The notes under the pieces were generated by a model that did not search any database, had not been told where the DNA came from, and worked only from the letters and a program-made list of their open reading frames with translations. A DNA stretch of 64,000 nt, from assembly GCF_021732705.1 (NCBI RefSeq), contig NZ_JAKFUM010000008.1, positions 235,667 through 299,666 on the forward strand. The letters run 5' to 3'. Origin of the DNA: Nevskia sp. (lineage in GTDB: Bacteria; Pseudomonadota; Gammaproteobacteria; Nevskiales; Nevskiaceae). A program made the translations under genes and the position numbers. The number at the start of each line of letters is the position of its first letter. The first letter of the stretch is position 1. Below are positions 2,172-63,942 of the stretch, piece by piece.

Positions 2172-2912
2172 ATGGACCGCAAGCTGATTCCGACGGCGCT
2201 CTCGACCGTCATCGCCGCTACCCTGTTTGCCACTGCAGCCCCGTCGTTCGCGCTCGGCAAGGGCGCGCTGGATGTCGGCGCCGGTGCCGGCGTCGGCGTG
2301 TCGGCCGGCGGCCTGAATGTCGGCACCGATCTCGACGCGCGAGCCCGCCTCGACGCCGAAGCGGCCGCGAAGGCCAAGCTCGATGCCGAAGCCGCTGCGA
2401 AGGCCGCGGTGGATGCCAAGGCCAGCGCCGCAACCGGCGCCGCCGCTTCGACCGCCGCCGGTGCTGCGGCTGACGCCAATGTCGGCGTCGGCGCCAGCGG
2501 CGGCCTCGGCCTCGGCGGTGCCCTGAAAGGCACCGGCGGCGCGCTGAAGGGCGCGGCGAAGTCGACCACGGGTGCGGTCAAGGGCACCGTCGGTGCCACC
2601 ACCGGTGCCGTCAAGGGCGCGGCCGGCGCCACGGTCGACGCCGGCAAGAGCGCGGCGGGTGCCACGGTCGATGCGACCAAGAGCACCGTGAAGGCGGGCG
2701 CCGGTGTCGCGACCGACGCGGCCGTCGGCACCAAGGCGGCAGTGACCTCGACGGCCGCGGGTGCGGCGGGTGCCGCGAAGGCCACCGCCGGGGCTGCGAC
2801 CTCGGCGGCGTCGACCGCTGCCTCGGCGAAGGTCGATGCCGCGGCCGCAGCCGGTGCCGGTGCCGCGAAGGTCGACGCCAAGGTTGAAGCGGGCGCAGCG
2901 GTCAAGCCCTGA
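2172..2912 (+). CDS. Secreted Ala/Gly/Lys-rich low-complexity protein (LEA/histone-H1-like repeats)
   Basis: ATG at 2172 gives signal peptide MDRKLIPTALSTVIAATLFATAAPSFA followed by KGAxGATVDAxKS-type degenerate repeats; a terminator lies downstream. Confidence 0.65.
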   Translation: MDRKLIPTALSTVIAATLFATAAPSFALGKGALDVGAGAGVGVSAGGLNVGTDLDARARLDAEAAAKAKLDAEAAAKAAVDAKASAATGAAASTAAGAAADANVGVGASGGLGLGGALKGTGGALKGAAKSTTGAVKGTVGATTGAVKGAAGATVDAGKSAAGATVDATKSTVKAGAGVATDAAVGTKAAVTSTAAGAAGAAKATAGAATSAASTAASAKVDAAAAAGAGAAKVDAKVEAGAAVKP

Positions 2913-2974
2913 GCTGACACGCCGTCCGGCCGGGCCGCGCAGCCCGGTCGGACCGTGACGCGAAGGGATGTCGC

Positions 2975-3012
2975 AAAAAAAGCGGCCGGGCAACCGGCCG
3001 CTTTCTTGTTTC
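2975..3012 (+). terminator. Rho-independent terminator-like hairpin
   Basis: aaaaaAGCGGCCGG-GCAA-CCGGCCGCTttcttg; stem 9 bp flanked by A and T tracts, possibly bidirectional. Confidence 0.75.
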
Positions 3013-3052
3013 AGGATCGGGCGCGAGATTCGTCGCGTCCGCTGCCGCGCGC

Positions 3053-3571
3053 TCAGGCGCTGTGCAGCTGCCGGTAGATCTCGTCGCGCAGCGGGCCGGA
3101 CGCCCACTTCACCAGCGACGACGGGCAGTACTGGGCCGGCGCGAAGCCGGCCGCAATCCGGAACAGATCGGACGTGATCCGCTCGATGCCCGAGCGATAG
3201 CCCTTGAACAGGTCGGACTCGTTCGCGTGCATCGACTTCAGCGACGCCAGCAGCACGTTGACCGGCACGTAAGGGGCGATGCGATCGAGAATCCGCTCGA
3301 CCAGCGCCAGATCCTTGTCGTTCGGGCCTTCATCGAGCACGACGCTGACCAGCTTCGGGTTGCCGCCGGTGCGGTTCGCCGATTCCTTGCGCAGCTTCGG
3401 GTCGCGGGCGTAATAGGCAGCCACGGCGAGAATGATGAACAGCTCGTCGTAGGAATCCTCGGTGAAGTTGATGTCGTCCGGGATCAGGCCTTTCAGCGCC
3501 GGCTTCAGCGCCGCGAGCAGGCCGGGGAACTCTTCGTCCAGCCGGGCAATGCGGCGGAAGGATGCGGTCAT
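3053..3571 (-). CDS. Conserved hypothetical protein
   Basis: MTASFRRIARLDEEFPGLLAALKPALKGLIPDDINFTEDSYDELFIILAVAAYYARDPKLRKESA...; internal ATG preferred over the extended ORF. Confidence 0.6.
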   Translation of the reverse strand: MTASFRRIARLDEEFPGLLAALKPALKGLIPDDINFTEDSYDELFIILAVAAYYARDPKLRKESANRTGGNPKLVSVVLDEGPNDKDLALVERILDRIAPYVPVNVLLASLKSMHANESDLFKGYRSGIERITSDLFRIAAGFAPAQYCPSSLVKWASGPLRDEIYRQLHSA

Positions 3572-3707
3572 CGATGACTCTCCATGAATGGCAGGTCCGT
3601 GAACTATGCACGGCCTTTGCCAAAGTATAGCGGTGGCTTTCGGCGCTTCGCGCATTCCACGTGATGCGGGTCGTGCTGGCGATGCGAAATCGCCTGCGCG
3701 CAGCGAC

Positions 3708-4634
3708 TCAGACCGGAATCGTGCCGTCGAGCATGCGCACGGCATGGCCGCCAACGCGCACGGCGGTCACGGCACCGGCGACCTTGTCGACCTCGATCAG
3801 CAGCAGACTCGGCCGGCCCATCTCCAGACCCTGATGGATCGGCCAGCGCAGCGTGCCGTCAGTCATCGGCGATTCCAGCCCGAGCCGCCCGGCCAGCGCC
3901 ACCGCGGCCGAGCCGGTGGCCGGGTCTTCGACCACGCCGGAGCCCGGCGCGAACATGCGCGCGCGCAGTTCGCCGTCGTAGCCGCGGGCGTATACGTACA
4001 CGTGGTGCGCCCAGGCCTGCGCCAGCGCGCGGCGCCAGAGTTCGACATTGAACGCGATGCCGGCCAGCAGTTCCGGCGAGCGCAGCGGCACCAGCACGTA
4101 TGGCACGCCGCAGCTGCAGGCGCGCGGCGCTTCGTCGTAGCCCTGCCCGCTCGCGCCGATATCGTCGGCGGCCAGCCCGAGCATCGCGGCCAGCACCGCG
4201 TTCGATGGCACATCCTCAACACCATTCGGACTCCACGCCGGCAGCACGGCAGTGGTCAGTTCGCCGAACAGCGGCCGGCCGGCTTCGCGCACGACGCGCA
4301 CCGGCACCAGGCCGACGTTTTCCTCGAGCACGAAGCGCACGTCGTCGCCCTGCGGCGCCAGCCCGAGTTCGGCCAGCAGGCAGGCCGTGCCGACCGTGGG
4401 ATGGCCGGCGAATGGCAGTTCGACATCGGGCGTGAAGATGCGGACCTTGAACTGCGCCTGCGCGTGATTGGCGGCCTGCACGAACACGGTTTCGGACAGG
4501 TTGAACTCGCGCGCCATGGTCTGCATCTGGCGCGTGTTCAGGCCATCGGCCGCCAGCACCACGGCCAGCGGATTGCCGCCGTAACGGCGATCGGTGAAGA
4601 CATCGAGCGTGTGGAAGGCGAGTCGGTCGGTCAT
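3708..4634 (-). CDS. PhzF-family isomerase/epimerase
   Basis: FHTLDVFTDRRYGGNPLAVVL...MQTMAREFNLSETVFV...VRIFTPDVELPFAGHPTVGTA...VEDPATGSAA. Confidence 0.9.
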   Translation of the reverse strand: MTDRLAFHTLDVFTDRRYGGNPLAVVLAADGLNTRQMQTMAREFNLSETVFVQAANHAQAQFKVRIFTPDVELPFAGHPTVGTACLLAELGLAPQGDDVRFVLEENVGLVPVRVVREAGRPLFGELTTAVLPAWSPNGVEDVPSNAVLAAMLGLAADDIGASGQGYDEAPRACSCGVPYVLVPLRSPELLAGIAFNVELWRRALAQAWAHHVYVYARGYDGELRARMFAPGSGVVEDPATGSAAVALAGRLGLESPMTDGTLRWPIHQGLEMGRPSLLLIEVDKVAGAVTAVRVGGHAVRMLDGTIPV

Positions 4635-4891
4635 CGGCGCGGCGAAGTCGAAGGTGAAGCGGAACCCGCGGGCGCGACACCCGGTGGCCCCGACGGTCTT
4701 TGACGATACCCGGGGACACGCTTCACCGCGAGCCGTTCCCGGATTTGTCATCGCCGTGTAATGTCGGTGTCAAGACCGGCGCGCTTCGGGGGCGTTACGC
4801 GCCGGGATCACTCACCAGCCTGTCGTCGTGCAGCAGCTTTCCGGCCCATGCCGGACTGCCGCGCGTGGCTCACCAATGAAGGGGATACCGC

Positions 4892-7801
4892 ATGAAAGAC
4901 GGAACCAGACCGGCGCGACGGAACCGCGCCATCCTGCTCGGCTCGGCACTGCTCGGCAGCAGCCTTGCCGCCGGCACGGCGCAGGCGCAGCAGGCCGCCG
5001 CGGCCGACGCACCGACCGCCACCAAGCTGCAGGCGGTGGAAGTCACCGGCTCGCGCATCAAGAAATCCGAAGGCACGGGCGAAACGCCGGTGCTGACCCT
5101 GACCGCCGCGGAGCTTCAGGCCACCGGCATCACCTCGATCGGCGACATCATCCAGCGCCTCGGCGTCAGCGGCTCGTCGCTGAACACCAAGTTCAACTCG
5201 GCCGGCAACTTCGGCTTTCCGGCGGATGGCGGCGGCGTCGGCTCCGGCTCCACGACCATTTCGCTGCGCAACCTCGGCGCGCAGCGCACGCTGATCCTGG
5301 TCGACGGCCTGCGTTGGGTGAACGAATCATCGGCGTCCGGCGTGTCCGGCGCGGTCGATCTGAACACCATCCCGTTCAGCGCCATCGAGAAGGTCGAGAT
5401 CCTGACCGACGGCGCCTCGTCGCTGTACGGCTCGGATGCGATCGGCGGCGTCGTCAACATCATCACCAAGAAGAGCCAGAAAGGCGCGCTCGCCAGGGTC
5501 TATTACGGCGATTACGAGACCGGCAACGGCCAGACCTACACCGGCAACCTGTCGCTCGGCGTCAAGGAGAAGGCCTACGAGTTCTTCGTCGACCTGTCGC
5601 ACTACCGCCAGCGCGAAATCAGTTCGTCGGCCACCGATCAGTCGAGCTTCCCGATTCCGGGCACCGGCACGACGTTCGGCAGCTCGTCGACCGCCTTCGG
5701 GCGTCAGGTGTTCTTCCCGAACGGCAACAACACCTACGGCGGCCTGTGCCCGCTGACCGACACCAACGGCGACAACATTCCGGACACCGCGTTCTGCAAC
5801 ATCACGCCGAACGGCGTGAATTCGACGTTCCCGAGCCAGTATCACGGCTTCACCGATGCCGATCGCTTCAACTTCGCACCGTTCAACCTGCTGCTGACGC
5901 CAAGCCAGCGCAGCGCCGTGTTCACGCACGGCCGCTACAACGTCAACGACAACGTGCGTTTCTACGTCAAGGGCCTGTACCAGTCGCGCAAGTCGGTCAA
6001 TCAGGCGGCACCGGAACCGATCTTCCTCGGCCCGGGCGCCGGCACCGGCGGCCTTGCCGATACCGTCGGCATCGACGCGACGAATCCGTTCAATCCGTAC
6101 GGCTACTCGCTGGATTCGTCGAACCTCGTGCTGTTCGCGCGGCGACCGGTCGAAGGCGGGCCGCGCGTGTTCCAGCAGGATGTCAGCACCCGCTACTTCA
6201 ACACCGGCTTCGACGGCTCGTTCGAAGTGTTCGATCGCTTCTTCGCCTGGGACGTGAACTACGTAAACAGCGTCAATTCCGCCGAACAGCGCATCAACGG
6301 CACCTACAACATCCGCCGCATCGCCAACGCGCTGGGGCCGATCGCCAACTGCGTGGCGCCGTGCGTGCCGCTGAACCTGTTCGGCGGTCCGGGCACGATC
6401 ACGGCGGAGCAGCTGAACTACATCTCGTTCATCGAACGCGATTCCAGCCGTCAGACGCTCGACCAGGTCACGCTGAACCTGTCCGGCACCATCGTCCCGC
6501 TGCCGGCCGGCACGCTCGACTTCGCCACCGGCTACGAGCACCGCAAGCTGTCCGGCTCGTACTCGCCGGATGCCGTGGTCACCGCCGGCGAATCGAACGG
6601 CGTGCCGAGCCTGCCGACCAGCGGCCGCTACTCGGTCGACGAGTTCTACGTCGAATTCGCAGTGCCGCTGCTGAACAAGCAGCCGTTCGCCAAGCGGCTG
6701 GACCTGAGTCTGGCCTCGCGCCTGTCGGACTACTCGACGTTCGGCACCACGATCAAGAGCAAGGTCGGCCTGCGCTGGCAGCCGGTCACCGACCTGACCC
6801 TGCGCGGCACCTACGCGGAGGGGTTCCGGGCGCCGTCGATCGGTGAATCGTTCGGCTCTCCGGCGCGTTTCGATGCCTCGATCGAGGATCCGTGCTCCGG
6901 TGCCACCGGCGCCACCGCCACCACCTGCCAGCAGGTGTTCGGCACGCCGGTCGGCTTCCAGCAGGCCAACACGCAGATCTCGATCCGCACCGGTGGCAAC
7001 GCCAATCTCGATGCCGAAACCTCGCGCAGCTACACCGCGGGACTCGTCTACAGCCCGTCATGGGCGGAGAAGCAGGCCTGGTCGGATCGCATCGATCTGG
7101 AACTGACCTTCTACAAGCACAAGGTCAAGAACGCGATCCAGTCGCCGGATGCCCAGACCCAGCTCAATCGCTGCGTCGCCAGCGGCGATCCGAACTCGAC
7201 GTTCTGCCAGGGCATTTCGCGCGGCAGCAGCGGCGACATCAACGGTTTCGACTCGACCTTGCGCAACCTCGGCGTGATCGAGACCCAGGGCTACGACATC
7301 GGCATCGGCTGGAACAGCCCGCGCTACGCGTTCGGCAAGTTCAACATCAACTGGAACACGACCTACATCGAGAACTACCGCGCGGTGGCCACCGACACCG
7401 GTCTGGAAGAACCGCGCGGCGTCGGCAATGAGGTCAGCGACAGCGGCATTCCGCGCTGGAAGTCGACCATCACCACCAACTGGAACCTGGCGCCGTTCAC
7501 CGCAGGCTGGACCATCCGCTACATCTCGCCGCTGCGCGAGCTGTGCGGTGATGCCGCGGCCTTCCCGGTGTGCAGCGATCAGGCTGCCGGCGTCAATCGC
7601 TTCGACCCGGTCGTCTACCACGACTTCCGCGCCGGCGTGACCCTGCCGATCCCGTACAAGCCGGAACTGACCGCGGGCGTCAACAACGCCTTCAACGCCG
7701 GCCCGCCGACCTGCGTCAGCTGCTCGCTGAACGGCTACGACGCCTCGAACTACGACCTGCCGGGCCGCTTCGCCTATGTCCAGGCAACCGTGAAGTTCTG
7801 A
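4892..7801 (+). CDS. TonB-dependent receptor
   Basis: Signal peptide, plug domain (VEVTGSRIKK...ISLRNLGAQRTLILVDGLRW...VEILTDGASSLYGSDAIGGVVNIITKK), beta-barrel ending ...YVQATVKF. Confidence 0.93.
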   Translation: MKDGTRPARRNRAILLGSALLGSSLAAGTAQAQQAAAADAPTATKLQAVEVTGSRIKKSEGTGETPVLTLTAAELQATGITSIGDIIQRLGVSGSSLNTKFNSAGNFGFPADGGGVGSGSTTISLRNLGAQRTLILVDGLRWVNESSASGVSGAVDLNTIPFSAIEKVEILTDGASSLYGSDAIGGVVNIITKKSQKGALARVYYGDYETGNGQTYTGNLSLGVKEKAYEFFVDLSHYRQREISSSATDQSSFPIPGTGTTFGSSSTAFGRQVFFPNGNNTYGGLCPLTDTNGDNIPDTAFCNITPNGVNSTFPSQYHGFTDADRFNFAPFNLLLTPSQRSAVFTHGRYNVNDNVRFYVKGLYQSRKSVNQAAPEPIFLGPGAGTGGLADTVGIDATNPFNPYGYSLDSSNLVLFARRPVEGGPRVFQQDVSTRYFNTGFDGSFEVFDRFFAWDVNYVNSVNSAEQRINGTYNIRRIANALGPIANCVAPCVPLNLFGGPGTITAEQLNYISFIERDSSRQTLDQVTLNLSGTIVPLPAGTLDFATGYEHRKLSGSYSPDAVVTAGESNGVPSLPTSGRYSVDEFYVEFAVPLLNKQPFAKRLDLSLASRLSDYSTFGTTIKSKVGLRWQPVTDLTLRGTYAEGFRAPSIGESFGSPARFDASIEDPCSGATGATATTCQQVFGTPVGFQQANTQISIRTGGNANLDAETSRSYTAGLVYSPSWAEKQAWSDRIDLELTFYKHKVKNAIQSPDAQTQLNRCVASGDPNSTFCQGISRGSSGDINGFDSTLRNLGVIETQGYDIGIGWNSPRYAFGKFNINWNTTYIENYRAVATDTGLEEPRGVGNEVSDSGIPRWKSTITTNWNLAPFTAGWTIRYISPLRELCGDAAAFPVCSDQAAGVNRFDPVVYHDFRAGVTLPIPYKPELTAGVNNAFNAGPPTCVSCSLNGYDASNYDLPGRFAYVQATVKF

Positions 7802-52812: not shown

Positions 52813-53391
52813 TCATTGGTCTTCATCGAATGCGCAGACGGCCGACTTCCAGCGCTCGAATTCGCTGGCGACGGCCAGCACCTGGGCGGTCATGCTTCCA
52901 TTGGCGGCCGGCACCAGGCAGAAAATGGCGCTGTACCCGCCGCCAACGGGCACCTTCCCCGCGGCACGACTCTTGGCGGCGATGGTGATGACGTAGGGAT
53001 GGTTCTGCTTCAAACGTGAGGCCGGCGTGTGCAGCTTTGCGCCGTCCGGCAACTTTCCATACACAAGGCAGTCGGCCGCGTTGATTTCGATGGAGCGGCC
53101 CGGCGGATCGATCGAAAATGACCAGACTTCATCTGGCAGCGTTGTCCAGTCACCGCTGGGTCGCGTCGTTTCGGAAACAGACACCCGGAATAGATCGAGC
53201 TTGGATTTCTGGTCTTCGGATTGCCTTGAAACCGAGAAGCAGGCGTTATTGTCGGTGACGGATACTGCGGCAACGCCGAGACGCGACGTGGCGTGGCAAC
53301 TCATGCTGGAAAGACAGATGCCGGCGCCGATGGCCATGCTCGCCAACTTGGTTGTCGTCACCGTGCGATACGGAAACGAATGCTTTCTCAT
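52813..53391 (-). CDS. Exported protein, candidate T6SS periplasmic immunity protein
   Basis: N-terminal signal region IGAGICLSSMSCHA; VTDNNACFSV...GRSIEINAADCLVYGKLPDGAK...; 8-bp gap after the PAAR-effector gene. Confidence 0.6.
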   Translation of the reverse strand: MRKHSFPYRTVTTTKLASMAIGAGICLSSMSCHATSRLGVAAVSVTDNNACFSVSRQSEDQKSKLDLFRVSVSETTRPSGDWTTLPDEVWSFSIDPPGRSIEINAADCLVYGKLPDGAKLHTPASRLKQNHPYVITIAAKSRAAGKVPVGGGYSAIFCLVPAANGSMTAQVLAVASEFERWKSAVCAFDEDQ

Positions 53392-53399
53392 GGTTTCGG

Positions 53400-54578
53400 T
53401 CACGAAGGAAGATTGGTGACGTCGGAAGGGTTCGCGATGAAGTCCTTCAGCACACTCCGATAGAGCGCCAAATCGTTGGCATGCGACCATTGATTCAGCA
53501 GCGGAGGATCCCGATACGTCTTGATCGCCCAGTAATCCGCAAGGAGGTTGCCCTGCGCTTCCATGTTGTAATCGGAAAGTCTTGTCGTTGCCGAAAGACG
53601 GTATTCGTACGAAAGACCAATGCGAATGGCCCCGCGCCGCGCGACGGGATATCCCAGCTGGTACTGCCAGACATGCACCATTTCATGCATGAACCAGAGG
53701 GCATTTCCAAAGCTGCCTGAATTGGAAAAATCTTCCTGGAAATAGCTGGGATTGAAGTACATTTCGCCATTCGGCGTCATCGCAACATCGTCCGGCTGCA
53801 AGCCGAACCACAGGTACTCGCCGTTATGGACCTTCACTTTTGTGTAGTCGACAGACGTCCCGAACAACGAGCGTGCCATCGCGATTTCGCCGGATGTCAT
53901 GCCGCGCGATTGACCTGCCGGCGTTTGAACTTGCCGAACGGAAGTGCCGAGGTTGGCGGCATGGGTGCTGACGCCTGTCAGTGAGAAGACCAACGGCGTG
54001 ACCGAAGTCGGCGCTTGCTGCGCCGCAAAAGAACAGCAGGTCGGAAACGGTTTGGGCGTCAGTGACGCTTCGGTAATTCGAGCCGCCGCACGGGTACGAA
54101 TACGCGACGTCAGGCCTTTGTCATCCGTGGTTCCCGATACAAGGCTGCCATCGTCAAGTTTCAGCGCGTAGGCCACACCCGAAAGCGGACGTCCCTTGGC
54201 GTTCACGAAGCACAGTTGTTCGTCGAATTGCGCAAGGGCCTGATTTGCAGCGGCAAGCGCGGTCTCGGTGGCGGCTGATGCCGCTGCGCTGTCGACATCG
54301 CCACCGCCCTCATCATCGAAGCTGAGACTCTGCGACGCGATCAGTGTCGCGCCACAGGCGGTCTTGTCGCCATGTCGCGCAGCGGGTTTGCCGTCGATGG
54401 TGAAATCGGGATCGCCGGCGACGATCACCGTGGTTCCGCCATGGCCTTTCTCGGGACAGGTGACCTTGCTGCCGACGAGGGCAATCGGCTTGCCGTTGAT
54501 CGTGGCCGTGGCCGCGCCCTCGACCACCACGCCACCGTGGCTGGTCTTGTCGCCGATGACGATGTAGGGCTTGCCCAT
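53400..54578 (-). CDS. PAAR-domain protein with C-terminal metallopeptidase-like domain (candidate T6SS effector)
   Basis: N-terminal GKPYIVIGDKTSHGGVVVEGAATATINGKPIALVGSKVTCPEKGHGG (PAAR); C-terminal GMTSGEIAMARSLFG...NALWFMHEMVHVWQYQLG (HExxH). Confidence 0.85.
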   Translation of the reverse strand: MGKPYIVIGDKTSHGGVVVEGAATATINGKPIALVGSKVTCPEKGHGGTTVIVAGDPDFTIDGKPAARHGDKTACGATLIASQSLSFDDEGGGDVDSAAASAATETALAAANQALAQFDEQLCFVNAKGRPLSGVAYALKLDDGSLVSGTTDDKGLTSRIRTRAAARITEASLTPKPFPTCCSFAAQQAPTSVTPLVFSLTGVSTHAANLGTSVRQVQTPAGQSRGMTSGEIAMARSLFGTSVDYTKVKVHNGEYLWFGLQPDDVAMTPNGEMYFNPSYFQEDFSNSGSFGNALWFMHEMVHVWQYQLGYPVARRGAIRIGLSYEYRLSATTRLSDYNMEAQGNLLADYWAIKTYRDPPLLNQWSHANDLALYRSVLKDFIANPSDVTNLPS

Positions 54579-54637: not shown

Positions 54638-55480
54638 TCATTTTTTGGATCGTGCCGGCATTCGGTTTTCAATGTGACCGAAGTCGCGCAAGGTCCAGCG
54701 ACCACCCCAGGTCAGCCCGGCCGCTTCCGCCAACTCGCCATAGCGCTGGTAACCATTCAGTGCCCATGGATCTTTTTCCGAAATCACCAGCTTGCCGTCT
54801 CGGAAGAAGGCGCTGTCGGCCGCCTGTCCATACTGGTGATAGCTCTGCCAGGCTCCAGCGTTGGTGACGTTCTCGCCCTGTGATTGCAGAAACGCCTGAC
54901 GATCCGGACTGCGATAGCCCTCGAGCAGCACCATCGTGTAGCCCTCGACAGCCATCGCTTGGTAGATCGTCAGCAAGCGTTGCCGGAATTGTGGATCGAG
55001 ACGACTCCAGTCGCGATCAGCGGTGCCGAGATGCGGACGGACGCGTTCGACCTCTCGCGTGACGAAGACATCGGGCGGCAACGGCGGCGGCGGCACCAGT
55101 TGCTCGCCCTGCAGCAGCGACGTGGCGACGCGGTTCTCGGCACCCACACGATCATCGAAGCCGCTCAGCTGCCGGTTCTCGCCGAACAGCAGGACCAGTG
55201 CGACCGGCAGCAAGGCGATGGCGACAGCGCCGCCGATCAACGGTCCGTGGTCACGCGTCCAGTCTCCGAAGGCTGCCATGACACGCCTTGGGGCCAGCAA
55301 GTCGCGCGGCTGGCGTGGAGGCGGCCGCTGCTGGCGCAAGGCGCGGATGCGTTCCCCGAGGCGCGCGATCGATCGATCGATCGCGTCGATCCCGCCGCCG
55401 GCCGCGGATGGAAAGAACATCAGCCATGCCACGGCCAGCGCCAACACGAACAGCAGCAGAACTGTGATCAACATGGCCAT
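54638..55480 (-). CDS. TM-anchored M15/VanY-like peptidase (candidate peptidoglycan hydrolase)
   Basis: VLLEGYRSPDRQAFLQSQG...SYHQYGQAADSAFFRDGKLV...WGGRWTLRDFGHIE; N-terminal TM segments. Confidence 0.85.
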   Translation of the reverse strand: MAMLITVLLLFVLALAVAWLMFFPSAAGGGIDAIDRSIARLGERIRALRQQRPPPRQPRDLLAPRRVMAAFGDWTRDHGPLIGGAVAIALLPVALVLLFGENRQLSGFDDRVGAENRVATSLLQGEQLVPPPPLPPDVFVTREVERVRPHLGTADRDWSRLDPQFRQRLLTIYQAMAVEGYTMVLLEGYRSPDRQAFLQSQGENVTNAGAWQSYHQYGQAADSAFFRDGKLVISEKDPWALNGYQRYGELAEAAGLTWGGRWTLRDFGHIENRMPARSKK

Positions 55481-55586
55481 CCGTGGCGCGGCAGCAGTGG
55501 GATTTCGCAGATTTTTAGAATAATCTCGAATCGTTCCTCGCGAACAGGCCGGAAGGATCCGCCCTCTACACCCGTCACAGGCAAGG

Positions 55587-56405
55587 ATGCCGATGTCGAA
55601 CCGCCGCCGTCCCGCAACCGATCCCGCAGCGCGCGATGAGCAGGCGCACGGCGACCGCGGTCTGGCCGTGCACGGCGATGGCCGCGCTTCGCGACCACGG
55701 GTTGAAGCCGATGCCGTCAGCATCCTCGGCGCTGTCACCGCCGAACGTCAGGCAGCGTCAGGCGGCGATCGCGGACGTTCAGCGTCGCGGGCCCTGCCGG
55801 TGACGAATCGATCGCTCAGTCCTGCGCTGATCCTGCTGCTGATTGGCGCCACGATGTTGCTGGTGGTCGGCTATCGGCTGACTACCCGGGGGCCGGCGCC
55901 GACGAAGGTCCTTGTCTCGAATGCAGGCGTCGCTGCTCCGGCGCCAGCGGCACCGCAGATATTGGCGGCTGCGCCGGTATCGCTTGCGCCGAACGCGGCT
56001 GCAATCGAGACGATCGAACCGGCCGTCTCGCCAGCACACGACGCGCATGCGTCGCCGCCACCCGCCGAGCTCGAGCCATCATCGCCGCCGCCGACAACTT
56101 CGCAAGCGCAGGCCCGCACACGGCCTGCAGATGCGGCTGAGGCGGTCGTCAAGGACAAAAGGAAGGCATCCACGGCACCGCCTGCAGCTGTCCAAGCGGC
56201 GGTAACGGCGCCCGCTCGCTCATCGAAAGCCGTCGTCGAACGCACGGCGGGTGCGTCCACGGCAGACCTGATTCGCAAGTGCGAAGAGTTTGGCCCACTT
56301 GAAGGCCTGCTGTGCCGCATCCGCATTTGCTCGGATCTGTGGGGCATCGACCCTGCCTGCCCGGCGCAGTCGAAGCCGTCAGCGCTGACCGGAGACGCGC
56401 CGTGA
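55587..56405 (+). CDS. Hypothetical single-TM Ala/Pro-rich protein upstream of vgrG
   Basis: TM SLSPALILLLIGATMLLVVGY, low-complexity linker, C-terminal LLCRIRICSDLWGIDPACP; stop overlaps vgrG GTG. Confidence 0.6.
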   Translation: MPMSNRRRPATDPAARDEQAHGDRGLAVHGDGRASRPRVEADAVSILGAVTAERQAASGGDRGRSASRALPVTNRSLSPALILLLIGATMLLVVGYRLTTRGPAPTKVLVSNAGVAAPAPAAPQILAAAPVSLAPNAAAIETIEPAVSPAHDAHASPPPAELEPSSPPPTTSQAQARTRPADAAEAVVKDKRKASTAPPAAVQAAVTAPARSSKAVVERTAGASTADLIRKCEEFGPLEGLLCRIRICSDLWGIDPACPAQSKPSALTGDAP

Positions 56406-59224
56406 GCCTGGCCGGTGCTGCTGACGAGTTGCTGAGCGCAGCGGCACAGCAATGGCGCGCGCTGCTCGCCCGGTTCTCGAGCGAGACTCGCCTGTTCGAT
56501 TTCGAGATCGACGGTGACGCGCCGGCGTTGTGGATCGAGCAGTTCGCGGGGACGGAAGGCCTGTCGACCGTGAGCGACTACCGCGTCACCGTGCTGTCGA
56601 CCGATGCCAACATCGCGCTCGACCGCTTGCGCTGGCTGCCGGCGCGCATCCGCATCCGGCTGCCCGATGGCGGCACCGAGTACCGCAGCGGTTACATCCA
56701 ATCCGCGCGCAGTCTCGGGTCAGACGGCGGTCTGGCTCGCTATGAGATGCGCCTCGTTCCATGGCTGTGGCTGCTGTCTCAGCAGCGTCATTCGCGGGTG
56801 TGGCAGCAGCAATCGCTGATCAATGTCCTGAACGATCTGTTCGACGCTTATGTCGAAGCACGCTGGCAGTTGACCGACGATGCGAGACGCTGGCTCGACG
56901 AGCTGCCGGCCGCGCCGTGTCGTCTGCAGTACCGTGAAACCGACCTCGCGTTCCTGACACGAACGCTGGCCGAGCATGGGCTCGGCTGGTGCTTCGTCGA
57001 GCCCGAGGCTACCGACCGCGGAAGCAGCATCGTGACGATCTTTCACGACAGCTGCCAGTTTCCCGAGGCGATGCCGGGCAGCATCCGGTTCCATCGCGCA
57101 GCCGCGATCGAAGCGGCCGACACCTTTCAGCACCTCGAAGAGTCGCGCGCCCTTCCGGCCGCATTGAGCACCGCGCTGGCCTGGGATCCATCCGCCAAGC
57201 GCGCCACAAGCGCCAGCACGCCCACGCGTCACGCCGTGCTCGGCATGCAAGGGCTCGCGATGCTGGAGCAGTACCGGCCGCTCGGTCACGGGCTTCCAAC
57301 CGATGCGCTGTCGGTTGATCGCCGAAGCCAGTTGATGCAGGAGGCCTGCGAGTCGCGCCACAAGGTCTTCCATGCGGTTGGCAATGTCCGGCACCTGCGT
57401 CCGGCGCAGCAGTTCCAGATGCTGGACGGCATCAGCCCATTGAGTCGTGCCGTGCAGGACGCCGCAGGCCTCGGCCGGTCCTCGTCATCGTCTTCACGAT
57501 TGCCGCCCGAAGCGCGTGATCGATACGCCGTCGTTGGTTTCGACTGCTGCGGCGTGAACAATCTGCCAGCGGAGTGGAAACAGCGACTCGATCCCGGATC
57601 GTCGACCGTATCCGACCTCCATGAACTTGCGCGCACCCAAGGGTACGCCGGCCGCTTTCACCTGCTGCGCGCCGCCATCCCGTGGCGACCGAACCAGGCC
57701 GGACAACGACTGCAAGGCACGGCACCGGGACCGCAGTCGGCGATCGTCGTCGCGGCCGATGGCTGCACCGGCGGCTCCGAAGAGATTCACCGCGACCGGC
57801 TAGGCCGCATCCGCGTGCGTTTTCACTGGCAGACCGAACCGGGCAACGACAGTGCGCATGCCAGCCATTCGACCTGCTGGCTGCGCATCGCCAGTCGCGC
57901 AGCCGGCGCCGGACGCGGCGCGAGCTTCGTCCCGCGTCTGGGGCAGGAGGTGTTGGTCGGCTTTCTCGACGGCGACATCGATCAGCCCATCGTCCTCGGC
58001 GCGCTCTACAACGGACGCGGCGAAGGCGGTATCGCGCCCAGCCCCGGCGGAACGTCGGCGTCATCAGCAGTTTCAGAAGACGTTTTCGAGCAAGCTGCCG
58101 ATGGCCGCGCGAGCGCCCAGGGCAACGTGCGCGGTGGCGCCTCGCCCGCATGGCACGGCCAGAGCGCAGCGCCGAGCGGTCACCACAACCCGATGAGCTT
58201 CACCGGCTACAAGACACGAGAATTCGGCGGTGGTGGTGGCTACAACCACCTGAGCTTCGACGATACGGACAGCGCCTTGCGCATCCAGCTCAAGACCACC
58301 CAGGCCGGCACGGAATTGAATCTCGGCCATCTGATCCACCAAGCCGACAACTACCGCGGCAGCACGCGTGGTCATGGCTTCGAACTGCGAACGGACGCGG
58401 GCGGTACGGTCCGATCCAGCCGGGGCATCCTGCTAGAAAGCCGGCGTGGTGTTGCACCAACGGAGCAACCGGAAGCACTCGGCGACTTTACGGCCGGCAC
58501 CACATTGCTGAAGCAAGTACAGAAACTCTCCGACGGCTACGACGACATGACCCGTCGGCACCACAACGCCGGCCTGTCGCTCAATCGCGGCGCACAGCGA
58601 CCCGAGGTCAGTCGGTTGGACAGCCAGCGCCCTCCGGCCGCGGCGCTGACGCACATCGCATTGGCGACAACGCCAGCGGATGACCATGCGATTCCGCATC
58701 TGGGCGCAGCAGTCGTCGCCATCAGTGCGCAGGCGCAACTCGGTGTTGTCGCCGGTCAGTCGCTGCAGCAGGCCGCTGGCGAAACGATCATCACGGCCAG
58801 CGGCGGCGATGTCGACCACGCCATCGGCGGCAGCCTCCGAATCCACAGCGGCCAGGCCGTAAGCGTGCTCGCCAGCATCCAGACCGGCGCCGACAGTCCC
58901 GGCCTGAGCGCTATCGCTGCTCAAGGCCCGTTTCGCGTCGAAGCGCAGCACGGCGCGATGAACATCGACGCAAGACAAGACCTGAAGCTGGTCAGCGTCA
59001 CCAGCACCTTCGAAGCCGCCGCCAAGACCGCGATCACCCTCACGACGAAAGCCGGGGCCACGATCCGGATTGACGGCGGCGACATCAGCGTGTGTTGCCC
59101 TGGGCAGCTCGTCGTGCATGCGGCAAAGCATGAATTCGCAGGGCCGGCGAGCGGCAAGGCCAAGCTTCCGCAATTCCAGCCGAGCGAGCTCAAGCGGCGA
59201 CGGATGCTGGACTTCTCCGGTTAG
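56402..59224 (+). CDS. vgrG: Type VI secretion spike protein VgrG (TssI)
   Basis: N-terminal gp27-like; HRDRLGRIRVRFHWQTEPG...CWLRIASRAAGAGRGASFVPRLGQEVLVGFLDGDIDQPIVLGALYNG; FTGYKTREFGGGGGYNHLSFDDT. Confidence 0.95.
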   Translation: MSLAGAADELLSAAAQQWRALLARFSSETRLFDFEIDGDAPALWIEQFAGTEGLSTVSDYRVTVLSTDANIALDRLRWLPARIRIRLPDGGTEYRSGYIQSARSLGSDGGLARYEMRLVPWLWLLSQQRHSRVWQQQSLINVLNDLFDAYVEARWQLTDDARRWLDELPAAPCRLQYRETDLAFLTRTLAEHGLGWCFVEPEATDRGSSIVTIFHDSCQFPEAMPGSIRFHRAAAIEAADTFQHLEESRALPAALSTALAWDPSAKRATSASTPTRHAVLGMQGLAMLEQYRPLGHGLPTDALSVDRRSQLMQEACESRHKVFHAVGNVRHLRPAQQFQMLDGISPLSRAVQDAAGLGRSSSSSSRLPPEARDRYAVVGFDCCGVNNLPAEWKQRLDPGSSTVSDLHELARTQGYAGRFHLLRAAIPWRPNQAGQRLQGTAPGPQSAIVVAADGCTGGSEEIHRDRLGRIRVRFHWQTEPGNDSAHASHSTCWLRIASRAAGAGRGASFVPRLGQEVLVGFLDGDIDQPIVLGALYNGRGEGGIAPSPGGTSASSAVSEDVFEQAADGRASAQGNVRGGASPAWHGQSAAPSGHHNPMSFTGYKTREFGGGGGYNHLSFDDTDSALRIQLKTTQAGTELNLGHLIHQADNYRGSTRGHGFELRTDAGGTVRSSRGILLESRRGVAPTEQPEALGDFTAGTTLLKQVQKLSDGYDDMTRRHHNAGLSLNRGAQRPEVSRLDSQRPPAAALTHIALATTPADDHAIPHLGAAVVAISAQAQLGVVAGQSLQQAAGETIITASGGDVDHAIGGSLRIHSGQAVSVLASIQTGADSPGLSAIAAQGPFRVEAQHGAMNIDARQDLKLVSVTSTFEAAAKTAITLTTKAGATIRIDGGDISVCCPGQLVVHAAKHEFAGPASGKAKLPQFQPSELKRRRMLDFSG

Positions 59225-59241: not shown

Positions 59242-60180
59242 ATGGCAGATCAACCAGCAAACAAGGTCAAGCGCTGGGCCTACCCTTTCCAGCTCATTGG
59301 CAACAAGGAGATCGAAGACCCGCAGGTCTTGCTTCATGCACTGTCGATGGCGGAAGACGGTACCTATCCGATCGGTGCCAACGGTCTATGGCACGGCGGT
59401 GTCCATTTCGACCGCAACACTGGGGCTGTGCTCGCACAGGACGCTGGCGTTCGCTGTATTGCAGATGGGGAAGTAGTCGCTTACCGGATTGATCGCACAT
59501 ATCCCGAAATTGCCTACCCTGACGGCAAGCGGGCGCTGTATTCAACCGGCTTTGTATTGATTCGCCATCGGTTGGAATTACCACCAAGGCCGGGCATGGC
59601 CATGCCGAGCGCGCCTGTTGTGGCACCACCGCCTGAGCCCGCGTTGATCTTCTTCAGTCTCTATATGCACTTGCGTGACTGGACACGGTATCACGCTGAT
59701 CCGGCCGCGCCGCGACCTGCATTCTGGCGAGGTCCGTCGACTGAGTATCGTGTTGGCATGAATGCGAATGACGAGGAACCAATCCTGGCGCCCGGAGCGA
59801 AGGGTCTCAGAGTCCGCGATGGCAGTGGTGTACCAATCGGCCTGCTGCCGCGCGGTTATCGAGTGACCTTGGGTCCTGCAAACCACGCGAGACCCGGGTT
59901 TTTCGTATTGGCATCAGTGACCGATGGGGATTCGATCCCTGCAGGCCTGCAAGACGCTTATGTTCACAAGGCCAGCCTCGATCCGCTTCGCGAGCCGGAC
60001 GCGGGTGCGATGGATGCGGTACTTGTCTTGGCGACACCACGGCCCATTGCCGCCGGTGCACTGGTTGGACATCTTGGCGAGTATGGACGCTACGTGGATG
60101 CCACACCGCTGCCTCCCACACCCGGAAGGCCGCTGCTTCACTTGAAGTTTTCACTGCCGACAACATTGAAGCATTCATAG
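59242..60180 (+). pseudogene. 5' part of a T6SS-associated peptidoglycan-hydrolase gene, frame-disrupted near 60,144
   Basis: ORF ends RPLLHLKFSLPTTLKHS*; the other frame continues RPLLHLE(V)FTADNIEAFIATSRARAAELEP... into the downstream ORF. Confidence 0.7.
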
Positions 60181-62057
60181 CGACGAGCCGCGCGCGAGCT
60201 GCCGAACTCGAACCCAGGCAGAAAAGCATTCTCGTCATCGAAAGTGGCGCGAAACTGTGCCAACCGGCCGTAGCGGACATGATGGTTCCCGCGGGTTCGA
60301 TCCTGTGGCGCTTCAGTGGCAAGGAAGCTGGCGAAGGCCCTTGGCTGCGCGTAAGAAAGACAGCTCCCACCATTGTCCCCGTTGACGAGCTTAAGGAACC
60401 ACAAGGAAGCGGAAGCTCCGGTTCGTTCCTCTACCGTGGGCAGCGTGTGCAGTTCACTGGCAACTATGTGAACTCCAACGGCGAACGAACCACGGATCGT
60501 TCGAAGCGAGCTCTCTTCACGAGACGCGAGCTACTGATTCCGACTGGGGCACCGTTCTGGATCGAAAGCTCGAAAATGCGTTCGAGCAACGCCATACCGG
60601 CGTGGTCTGCGTTTCCGCTGCGTACATCGGCCTTGAGTGCTCCAAGGCTTATGCAGCGGCGCGTTATCAATCGCCGTCAGCTTGAAAAGTCTGCCGCTGG
60701 GACGAGGGCGAAGGATGACCAAGGCGTATCGTGGTGGAAAGTCAGCGTTGGCGCTGATGAGGATCGAGCTGCCGAAGGCTGGGTCTGCGAAAAGAACCAC
60801 CCTCAAACAGCATGGAGATCCCCGTGGGATTGGCCAGGCTTCGAAGTCATCAGTGAAAGCGCGCCGCCCCTTGAACTGTTTTCCCGTGAACTGCACAGGA
60901 TTGGCGTCGCCACAGACAACTCCGAGGCCGAAAATCTCAAGATCAGAGCAGACGGCGTGGACGGCGGATCGCTTCTGACGGCGCTCCGGACCGCGATCGA
61001 TGCGCAGGGTGACCGGAACGGTCAGGTGAGTGGCGAAGAGTTGAGATTATCTCTGCGTGAGCCTTGGCTTGCCGACCCAATCACTAGGCTAATCGTAAAG
61101 TACGAAAGTGAATGGTCTGGTCCGATGGACAAGTGGCGTACGTTGAATACGTTGATGTCGGAAGGATTGCCGATCTGGAACGTTGAGCTGGAACGAATCG
61201 CGAAGCTTCACTTATGGAATGAGTGGAACAACAGCAAAACTTTACGCTTGAATTCATTTGTTAGTCACTTTCATTCGACGGCGCTGACCACAAACTTTAT
61301 TGCTACGTGCAGTTGCGGCAAAGAAATTACGCACGAAGAGTTGGCTTTGATACTCCCTGCGGATGTAAAGAAAAATGGATTATTTTACAAGGCACATGAT
61401 ACAACTGTAAGAAATTATGATTCTGGCAGATTTTTAAGTCTTCTCAACAGATACATGCGCGAAAGCGACATCGTGACATGTGCGAGAAAGGCGCACTTTT
61501 TATCGCAGATGAGCCACGAATGTGATGAGCTCAGAACAAACGAAGAGTATCGAAACCGAGATGGATCAGTACCCTCTGGATGGAATGATTACCGCGGTGG
61601 CTCGAACTTCCACGGACGAGGATTAATGCAATTAACTCATGATTCTAACTACAGTGCTTACAGCATATTTACAGGAAATACGAATATTGCAAGGAATCCA
61701 GATATTGTAAGTCACAATATTCCTGATACCGTTAACTCTGCTTGTTGGTATTGGCGCAAGGGAAGCGCATGGGGCGATGTTAATCCAAAAGCTGATGCAA
61801 ATGATTTTTTTGCGATTACGGTCGCGGTGAATGGAGGATTCAACCATGTCGGCGAACGATTTGAAGCTTTGATGAAGCTGGCGGAGCTGTTGGGTGCCGA
61901 TCGATGTTCACTGACTCCGAATATGAGTTTCACTAGTTATAAAATCGAAGAAAGCGCATTGGCGGGCACGCGTTTTTATAGAAGTCATCAAGCCGCAGCG
62001 AAGTCAGCGCAAGATCGTATCGACGATATAAAGCGAGCGCTAAATGGACAACGTTAA
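60145..62057 (+). pseudogene. 3' part of the same gene: SH3-like region, EF-hand-like motif, GH19-like lysozyme/chitinase domain
   Basis: DAQGDRNGQVSGEEL; CARKAHFLSQMSHECDELRTNEEYRNRDGS...YRGGSNFHGRGLMQLTHDSNYSAYS; first in-frame ATG at 60279. Confidence 0.75.
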
Positions 62058-62988
62058 GAAACTTCTATCGAGCAGTTTAATTTTTTTTGTGCTGCTAATC
62101 GGCGGTGCTACTGCACAAGAGATACATGGCGAATTCTTGGATGGTAAAAAATACAGCGCCGAGATTCGAACCGAAGATGTAATAAACGAAGATGGAATGC
62201 GTATCAGAAAGAGCGAAGTCGCTGTTAAGCTGACTGATGGTACAAACAAATTATTTTATAAATTTGAATCAGATAGTATCTCTGCGGTAAGAAGTTCACC
62301 ATTTGGGTTTATTTCGATAATCACTAATTCTAGGGGGATGGAAGGAAGAGTACGATATGAGTACATAAGCCTGTATAAAAATGTGCTGGTGTCACTTGGT
62401 GTCGTAGAGCGACAGCTTCATTTGGGCAGGACGGCGTCAATTGAAATCCAGAAAGGACAGAGCGTTCCGCCAGGTATCACAGCTAAGATTATTGAAAACA
62501 TCATTGCCAACAAAGAATCTTTCGCGCTTATAGACCAATCTCCGTACCTTTTCGCAGCATTAATCTTGCTCGGCAGGAAATCTGAAAATAACAGGTCCAA
62601 GGAGCTTATTCTAAAAATTGTTGAAAATAAAGAGATTACTTCCGATAAAATTTTCCGTGAAGCCCTCGAAAAAATGAGAGTTCCCCGCGGGGGAACACTC
62701 AGATGTGGCTGGCTTGAAAAGTCGATGACATCTGGCGTCAAAATCACAGATAACGATGGGGTATGGACAATTAGAACGGGTAAGGACGGTATTGCAAATG
62801 ATGACCTACCGATTCTCGATCCTGATCAGTGGGTCGCAACTTCAAGCAACGAAGGTTACGGTTGCGTCTGCCTTCGGGTTGTTGCCAACGTCAGCACTCA
62901 TGAAGTAGTGAAGCTGATTTCTTCTTCTCCTAAATCGTTGCTTGCGTGTCGTAATGATAAGAAGCTCGTGGAGCCAGCCAAACCGTAG
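62044..62988 (+). CDS. Exported protein with C-terminal DUF4087-like domain; candidate immunity/accessory protein for the GH19 effector
   Basis: Signal peptide MDNVKKLLSSSLIFFVLLIGGATAQE; LRCGWLEKSMTSGVKITDNDGVWTIRTGKDG...GYGCVCLRV; start overlaps the preceding stop. Confidence 0.6.
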   Translation: MDNVKKLLSSSLIFFVLLIGGATAQEIHGEFLDGKKYSAEIRTEDVINEDGMRIRKSEVAVKLTDGTNKLFYKFESDSISAVRSSPFGFISIITNSRGMEGRVRYEYISLYKNVLVSLGVVERQLHLGRTASIEIQKGQSVPPGITAKIIENIIANKESFALIDQSPYLFAALILLGRKSENNRSKELILKIVENKEITSDKIFREALEKMRVPRGGTLRCGWLEKSMTSGVKITDNDGVWTIRTGKDGIANDDLPILDPDQWVATSSNEGYGCVCLRVVANVSTHEVVKLISSSPKSLLACRNDKKLVEPAKP

Positions 62989-63942
62989 TGACAGTCGAAA
63001 AGTCGATGATTACCACATGTCTGCTGCCATGCCGCTGATTGCGGTATCTGTCTTCGGACCTATTGCAGCTGCATGACGCCAGCTCGCGCTGACTTGGCCG
63101 CACTCTTGAAATAATCCTACTAGATAGAGCGGCACCCTATAAGGCTGAACTTCTCTGAGTAGCCGTGGACTAGCGGAGTCAGACACCCAAGGCGTGGAAT
63201 GTAGCTTGCGTATTTTTACTGCCATCGCCAGACGTTATAATGGCGAAAGCTTTCAACCGCGACTGAAGCCACTTCGTCTTCAGGCACTCACCAACCAGCT
63301 CGCGGATTAAGGATTCGCCGACGCTATCCCGCCAAGATACGCTGGACTCACGGATGGAGTTGTTGAAAACCGAGATCGTGATTCAGTCACGGATCGGCTT
63401 TCGTAAAACTTCGGGCTAGCTCTGCTTCCGTGGCTATCGCCTTGCGACGTGAACAATGATCAATTGTAAAAGCAGGTTGATGATGCGTGTGCCGCGAATT
63501 GAGCAGGCGAGATCGATCGGAAAGATGCCCCAGTGCCTATGCCGATGATTATCTGGCACATGCTGTGCTGACCACTGGCGTAGGCGTCGAACATGTCCTT
63601 TGAGTCCCTACAATCAATCTTTAATGCCGGCTGTAACGGTCGATCGCTACACATGACCAAGTGCCATCGTTGGTGCCCGCAGCGCAGCCCGTAGCTAGAG
63701 CTTGTGACAGCTGTCAACGCTCATCGCGTTGTGTCGTGGTGCGGGAAAACTCGAATCTTTGGGTCGTATTGGCGTATGTACTATGTTGACAGCGCTCTAT
63801 CGCCGAGACTTCAGTTGCGTCTCGTGCCGCCGTGGCCGATTTATAGATAGGCCGAAACTCGGCAACGAGGTACTGACCTGCTGGTCGAATTTCGGACCAC
63901 GTGACGCTTAAGATTCTGGCTCCCGCTATGAGCGAGGAGCAC

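What the first reader, a model, noticed from the sequence alone, without database searches (positions are those of the whole stretch)
59242..62057. T6SS GH19-type lysozyme/chitinase effector split by a single-nucleotide frameshift
The ORF at 59242 reads ...RPLLHLK|FSLPTTLKHS*, while the -1 frame reads HLEVFTADNIEAFIATSRARAAELEPRQKSILVIESGAKL... and stays open into the GH19-like ORF at 60279-62057. One missing G in CACTTG[G]AAG would restore a protein of about 938 aa combining an N-terminal M23/SH3-like region, an EF-hand-like loop and a C-terminal GH19-like domain. It lies directly downstream of vgrG. It may be a recent inactivation, a phase-variable toxin, two separately translated halves, or a sequencing error.
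Basis: partly seen in the sequence, partly recalled or inferred. Interest (0 to 1): 0.8.

Follow-up and report, generated by a model that had tools for sequence, protein, structure and literature searches.

The report
Broken cell-wall-cutting T6SS effector gene
A bacterial weapon gene of a known type, coding for a protein with two cell-wall-cutting parts that a type VI secretion spike would inject into rival bacteria, is interrupted by a reading-frame change that cuts off its second enzyme, while the neighbouring self-protection gene stays intact; this is an ordinary inactivation (or, less likely, an assembly error), not a new system.

Summary
ORF1 (59242-60180) and ORF2 (60279-62057; its frame has no stop in 60147-62054 and no start codon before 60279) are two halves of one gene. 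Of 90 homologue loci, 89 stay open at least 100 codons past the corresponding point and the other runs off its contig; in 64 the two matches abut base to base in one frame. None breaks there. The frame changes within about 60139-60147. There is no repeat tract, no slippery heptamer in the ORF1 frame and no ribosome-binding site before ORF2, so phase variation, programmed frameshifting and two separate genes are poorly supported. The gene follows vgrG and belongs to a known kind of modular T6SS peptidoglycan hydrolase (BCAL1166 of Burkholderia cenocepacia; TseP-like): M23-like domain with an inserted SH3, a stalk with an EF-hand-like loop, and an exchangeable lytic C-terminus, here GH19. A DUF4087 protein, the probable immunity protein, follows intact. 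GC falls from 0.59 to 0.45 inside the gene, as after a C-terminal swap. The break lies just after the last M23-like histidine, so ORF1 may encode a nearly complete M23-like domain without the lysozyme. Real mutation or assembly error cannot be settled here; a recent real mutation is somewhat favoured.

The parts
56312..59224 (+). vgrG (T6SS spike, tssI); the true start may lie slightly downstream of 56312
   Evidence: TIGR03361 247 bits over a cut-off of 186, Pfam Phage_GPD, T6SS_Vgr, DUF2345
59242..60180 (+). ORF1: front part of the interrupted effector, M23-like domain with an inserted SH3-like domain
   Evidence: Homologues L011-L101; model pLDDT 87.8; SH3_3 and weak Peptidase_M23 matches among homologues
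59359..59712 (+). First part of the M23-like domain (aa 40-157) with invariant H51, H55, H109, H143
   Evidence: A2; hhalign to an M23 profile with insert columns left out, about 90% probability
59779..60009 (+). SH3-like insert (about aa 180-256)
   Evidence: SH3_3 in 25 of 44 homologues; profile matches to solved bacterial SH3 domains, E 0.02-0.05
60013..60147 (+). Last part of the M23-like domain, ending in 'LLHL' (H300)
   Evidence: hhalign to the M23 profile, about 87% for this part alone
60139..60147 (+). Point where the reading frame changes
   Evidence: Matches of the two native frames abut here in a single frame of homologues
60147..61346 (+). Stalk region in the second frame, no start codon before 60279
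   Evidence: Homologous in 88 of 91 loci
60279..62057 (+). ORF2: second half of the interrupted effector
60999..61043 (+). EF-hand-like loop
   Evidence: Read in the sequence; EF-hand Pfam models match 6-11 of 43 homologues
61347..62054 (+). GH19 lysozyme/chitinase-type domain
   Evidence: Pfam PF00182, PHROG endolysins, 8XCL and 9EOI by profile, Foldseek
62044..62988 (+). Probable immunity gene: DUF4087 protein with a signal-peptide-like N-terminus, overlapping the end of ORF2
   Evidence: PF13316 67.9 bits; homologue at the same place in L041

Best explanation
The region is one T6SS cargo-effector gene downstream of vgrG, interrupted by a frame change (one base, modulo three) at about 60139-60147. 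When intact, members of this family would ride on VgrG into a rival's periplasm and attack peptidoglycan with an M23-like metalloenzyme domain and a lytic C-terminal domain, here a GH19 lysozyme. As assembled, translation stops after ORF1: the product is an M23-like domain with an SH3 insert that keeps the conserved histidines but lacks the stalk and the GH19 enzyme, and the GH19 half is not made. The immunity gene stays intact, so the cell would still resist sister cells carrying a working copy. Shown: one ancestral frame, the position of the break, the identity of the GH19 domain. Inferred: the M23-like fold and activity, delivery by this VgrG, the role of the DUF4087 protein, and that the change is real and recent.
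For: Continuous frame across the point in 89 of 90 homologue loci, the other running off its contig. Position directly after vgrG; T6SS sheath genes elsewhere in the genome. GH19 identity. No start codon or ribosome-binding site for the second half. No stop in 636 codons of the second frame against 32-33 in the other two, so the change is recent or not real. A coding-frame scan of 440 kb found no convincing broken gene, so no sign of an indel-rich assembly. Other members of the family are occasionally broken too, elsewhere (L014, L035, L038).
Against: The break is only 3.9 kb from a contig end and no reads or sister strains were available. The genome scan has low sensitivity (21 of 101 simulated losses passed its filter). 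The M23 fold is not confirmed by Foldseek.
Confidence: 0.62

Rival explanations
1. Assembly or sequencing error: the gene is intact in the living organism and makes a single bifunctional effector of about 900 aa.
For: The second frame is fully open with all conserved residues; every homologue is intact at this point; the site is near a contig end.
Against: The site is not a homopolymer or short repeat, where such errors concentrate. No convincing frame break was found in 440 kb of the same assembly, though the test is weak.
Confidence: 0.3
2. Two separately translated proteins: ORF1 and ORF2 are each made and work as two effectors or as a two-part toxin.
For: The break falls at the end of the M23-like domain. 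In TseP the N and C parts can be secreted separately and the N part alone supports T6SS assembly (PMC11893102).
Against: Conserved homology in the second frame begins about 130 bases before its first possible start codon; no ribosome-binding site before 60279; no homologue is split there.
Confidence: 0.03
3. Programmed -1 ribosomal frameshifting, or phase variation, makes both a short and a long product.
For: The second frame lies at -1 relative to ORF1 and the two frames are both open over 59772-60177.
Against: No X XXY YYZ heptamer in the ORF1 frame over 59772-60177, and no repeat tract at the site; no homologue needs a shift; the genome holds no second copy of ORF1 or of the same C-half to recombine with.
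Confidence: 0.03

Closest known systems
BCAL1166 of Burkholderia cenocepacia J2315 (M23 + SH3_3 + lysozyme-like C-terminus, next to tssI/vgrG; PMC6612558)
   Same: Same domain order and same place beside vgrG with an adjacent immunity gene; a B. cenocepacia locus (L073) is among the homologues, though not shown here to be BCAL1166
   Different: The window gene is interrupted; its C-terminus is GH19 and its immunity protein is of the DUF4087 type
TseP of Aeromonas dhakensis and homologues AHA_1849, PSPTO_5204 (amidase-lysozyme effectors; PMC11893102)
   Same: C-domain homologous (8XCL by profile 1e-36); zinc-amidase-type N-part whose listed residues include an H-xxx-H pair (H19/H23), as in H51/H55 here; GC step between the parts; single adjacent immunity protein
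   Different: Homology of the N-parts was not tested (no TseP N-part sequence at hand); TseP is one uninterrupted protein of 845 aa
S. rhizophila T6SS effector V2b (SH3-domain, predicted zinc DD-peptidase; PMC13340143)
   Same: vgrG-linked peptidoglycan effector with SH3 and metallopeptidase annotation, important for killing
   Different: Sequence not compared here; not interrupted
GH19 phage endolysins (PWe2 9MS7, Pseudomonas aeruginosa 9EOI)
   Same: Best sequence and fold matches of the C-terminal domain
   Different: Here the domain is the C-terminus of a T6SS cargo protein, not a free endolysin

Membership tests
M23-SH3-stalk T6SS peptidoglycan effectors (BCAL1166 / TseP-like) | Gene directly downstream of vgrG | tested here: met
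   vgrG ends at 59224, ORF1 starts at 59242
M23-SH3-stalk T6SS peptidoglycan effectors (BCAL1166 / TseP-like) | M23-like N-terminal domain with zinc-ligand histidines | tested here: inconclusive
   Profile match about 90% when the SH3 columns are left out, conserved histidines kept; weak Pfam M23 in 5 of 44 homologues; no Foldseek match
M23-SH3-stalk T6SS peptidoglycan effectors (BCAL1166 / TseP-like) | SH3_3 domain in the front part | tested here: met
   In 25 of 44 aligned homologues; the window's own copy is below threshold
M23-SH3-stalk T6SS peptidoglycan effectors (BCAL1166 / TseP-like) | Lytic C-terminal domain | tested here: met
   GH19
M23-SH3-stalk T6SS peptidoglycan effectors (BCAL1166 / TseP-like) | Single continuous reading frame | tested here: not met
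   Frame changes at 60139-60147; hence an interrupted member, not a working one, unless the assembly is wrong
M23-SH3-stalk T6SS peptidoglycan effectors (BCAL1166 / TseP-like) | Adjacent immunity gene | tested here: inconclusive
   DUF4087 protein overlaps the end of ORF2; homologue beside a 64% identical GH19 domain in L041; protection not testable here
M23-SH3-stalk T6SS peptidoglycan effectors (BCAL1166 / TseP-like) | Amidase or peptidase and lysozyme activity, secretion by T6SS | not testable with these tools
   Needs bench work
GH19 family | Score over the Pfam cut-off | tested here: met
   26.2 bits against 25.5; 27 bits in the genome search
GH19 family | Two conserved glutamates | tested here: met
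   Read from the alignments to 9MS7 and 8XCL: 'HE' and the second Glu in 'TNEEY'
Programmed -1 frameshift gene | Slippery heptamer in frame and shift conserved in relatives | tested here: not met
   None in the ORF1 frame; relatives uninterrupted
Phase-variable gene | Simple-sequence repeat or homopolymer at the switch | tested here: not met
   None at 60120-60175; nearest short repeat CGCGCGCG at 60189, nearest homopolymer of five or more at 59899

The most novel reading that the evidence does not exclude
The frame change is a real domain fission rather than a simple knock-out: ORF1 still makes a folded, secretable M23-like enzyme that keeps the conserved histidines and supports spike assembly, while the lysozyme half is silenced and immunity to it is retained.
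Probability: 0.15. Interest if true: 0.4.

Novelty: new member of a known kind. Interest (0 to 1): 0.2.

Why it matters
If the break is real, it is a clean example of a strain disarming one lytic activity of a T6SS effector while keeping its immunity. The locus also shows the mix-and-match build of this effector family: a shared M23-SH3-stalk front and exchangeable lytic ends (GH19, pesticin-type, phage lysozyme, muramidase, GH108 and others), with a GC step inside the gene. Otherwise it mainly says that ORF1 and ORF2 should be annotated as one interrupted gene.

Tried and rejected
Programmed frameshifting (no slippery heptamer in frame). Phase variation (no repeat tract; no second copy of ORF1 or of the same C-half in the genome). 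Separate genes. Relatives within the same family of genomes: none for ORF1; in the order only G079, apparently the Salinisphaera locus L041. The first scan of genome contigs with ORF1 alone found nothing; the scan with alignment A1 found 465 relatives. Foldseek with the ORF1 model gave no significant match, and a profile search of the PDB gave only SH3 entries at E below 0.1, none below 0.01. No paper on DUF4087 as an immunity protein was found.

Full report
Observation. ORF1 (59242-60180, 312 aa) and ORF2 (60279-62057, 592 aa) lie in different frames on the + strand. The ORF2 frame is open from 59772 but offers no ATG, GTG or TTG before 60279. Over 60147-62054 it has no stop, against 32 and 33 in the other frames. 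The codon-position GC pattern changes at about 60000-60300.

One gene, one break. Each half was searched in its native frame. Within the family of genomes only distant GH19 domains and no ORF1 relative turned up; one homologue exists in the order (G079), whose locus L011 gives the same matches as the Salinisphaera MAG locus L041. Plasmid records gave Burkholderia and relatives, and a profile scan of genome contigs gave 465 relatives, 80 kept. In the six closest loci examined first, the ORF1 match ends and the second-frame match begins at adjacent bases in one frame of one long ORF. Over 90 loci, 64 show this abutment, 89 stay open at least 100 codons past the end of the ORF1 match, and the remaining one (L040) runs off its contig. 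No homologue breaks at the window's position. Three others look broken elsewhere (L014, L035, L038), so occasional inactivation is normal in this family. The frame change maps to 60139-60147, just after the His-Leu that corresponds to the homologues' 'LLHLEVF'.

What the protein is. vgrG lies directly upstream, and the genome has two T6SS sheath loci on other contigs. The C-terminus is GH19: Pfam, PHROG endolysins, phmmer to PWe2 endolysin 3e-17, profile to 9EOI 2.8e-39 and to the TseP C-domain 8XCL 1e-36, Foldseek 2.1e-7. Both conserved glutamates are present. The N-terminus has no Pfam match of its own, but homologues match SH3_3 (25 of 44) and, weakly, Peptidase_M23 (5 of 44). When the SH3 insert columns are left out, the rest aligns along an M23 profile made from M23 proteins of the same order (hhalign about 90%, pairwise E about 1e-6), pairing H51/H55 with the HxxxD motif, H143 with the Y-x-H motif and H300 with the final HxH motif. 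H51, H55, H109 and H143 are invariant in 44 sequences and H300 is kept in 35. Foldseek did not confirm the M23 fold, so it stays an inference.

Modularity. The front and stalk are shared by nearly all homologues, while the ends differ: among 43 full-length homologues Pfam finds GH19 in 14, pesticin in 6, VgrG3-like C-terminus in 2, phage lysozyme in 2, and muramidase, GH108, M23 and NlpC/P60 in one each (the single M23 match was not placed and could be N-terminal). GC falls from 0.66 (vgrG) and 0.59 (ORF1 and the first part of the stalk) to 0.45 (61050-62057) and 0.43 (immunity gene), as expected if the C-terminus and its immunity gene arrived together. A similar GC step is described for TseP (PMC11893102). 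The downstream 314-aa protein has DUF4087 and a signal-peptide-like N-terminus (by eye); a homologue sits in the same place in L041, next to a 64% identical GH19 domain.

How it likely works. By analogy with BCAL1166 (PMC6612558) and TseP (PMC11893102), an intact member would be carried by VgrG and cut peptidoglycan with two domains in a rival's periplasm. As assembled, translation stops after ORF1 and the GH19 half has no start or ribosome-binding site. The predicted model of native ORF1 still forms the last strand (297-304; pLDDT 87.8 overall, lower at the very end), so a partly functional M23-like product is conceivable; TseP's N-part alone is secreted and supports T6SS assembly.

Why not something stranger. 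No repeat tract and no homopolymer at the site, no slippery heptamer in frame; no second copy of ORF1 or of the same C-half. An assembly error remains possible: the break is 3.9 kb from the end of contig C7 (299666 bases). A coding-frame scan of 440 kb gave four candidates, none of which looks like a broken gene on reading the translations, but its measured sensitivity is low (21 of 101 simulated losses passed the filter).

Verdict. Observation confirmed; an interrupted member of a known family of T6SS peptidoglycan-cutting effectors; low interest, modestly raised by the possibility that the front domain survives as a working effector.

Noticed in passing
window 53400-54578 (-) and 52813-53490 (-): A PAAR-domain protein with a C-terminal HEMVH (HExxH) metalloprotease-like motif, followed by a 225-aa protein with weak lipoprotein/T6SS-immunity matches: a second probable effector-immunity pair beside the vgrG.
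   Followed up: no
window 54638-55738 (-): M15-type D-alanyl-D-alanine carboxypeptidase / endolysin-like gene between the PAAR effector and vgrG.
   Followed up: no
window 61050-63000: GC drops from about 0.59 to 0.43-0.45 inside the effector gene and through the immunity gene, in a genome window of 0.66: looks like a swapped-in C-terminus plus immunity cassette.
   Followed up: partly
L014, L035, L038: Homologues that look interrupted at other points: Cupriavidus EM10 (GH19-like piece in another frame), Paraburkholderia dinghuensis (frame change in the stalk of one of two neighbouring copies), Luteimonas salinisoli (early stop).
   Followed up: partly
L021 (CP057065.1, 6678-base E. coli plasmid) 2462-5125: An intact ~740-aa distant homologue of the effector front plus a small downstream gene sits on a tiny cryptic E. 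coli plasmid with no vgrG among its annotated genes: an odd home for a T6SS cargo-like gene.
   Followed up: no
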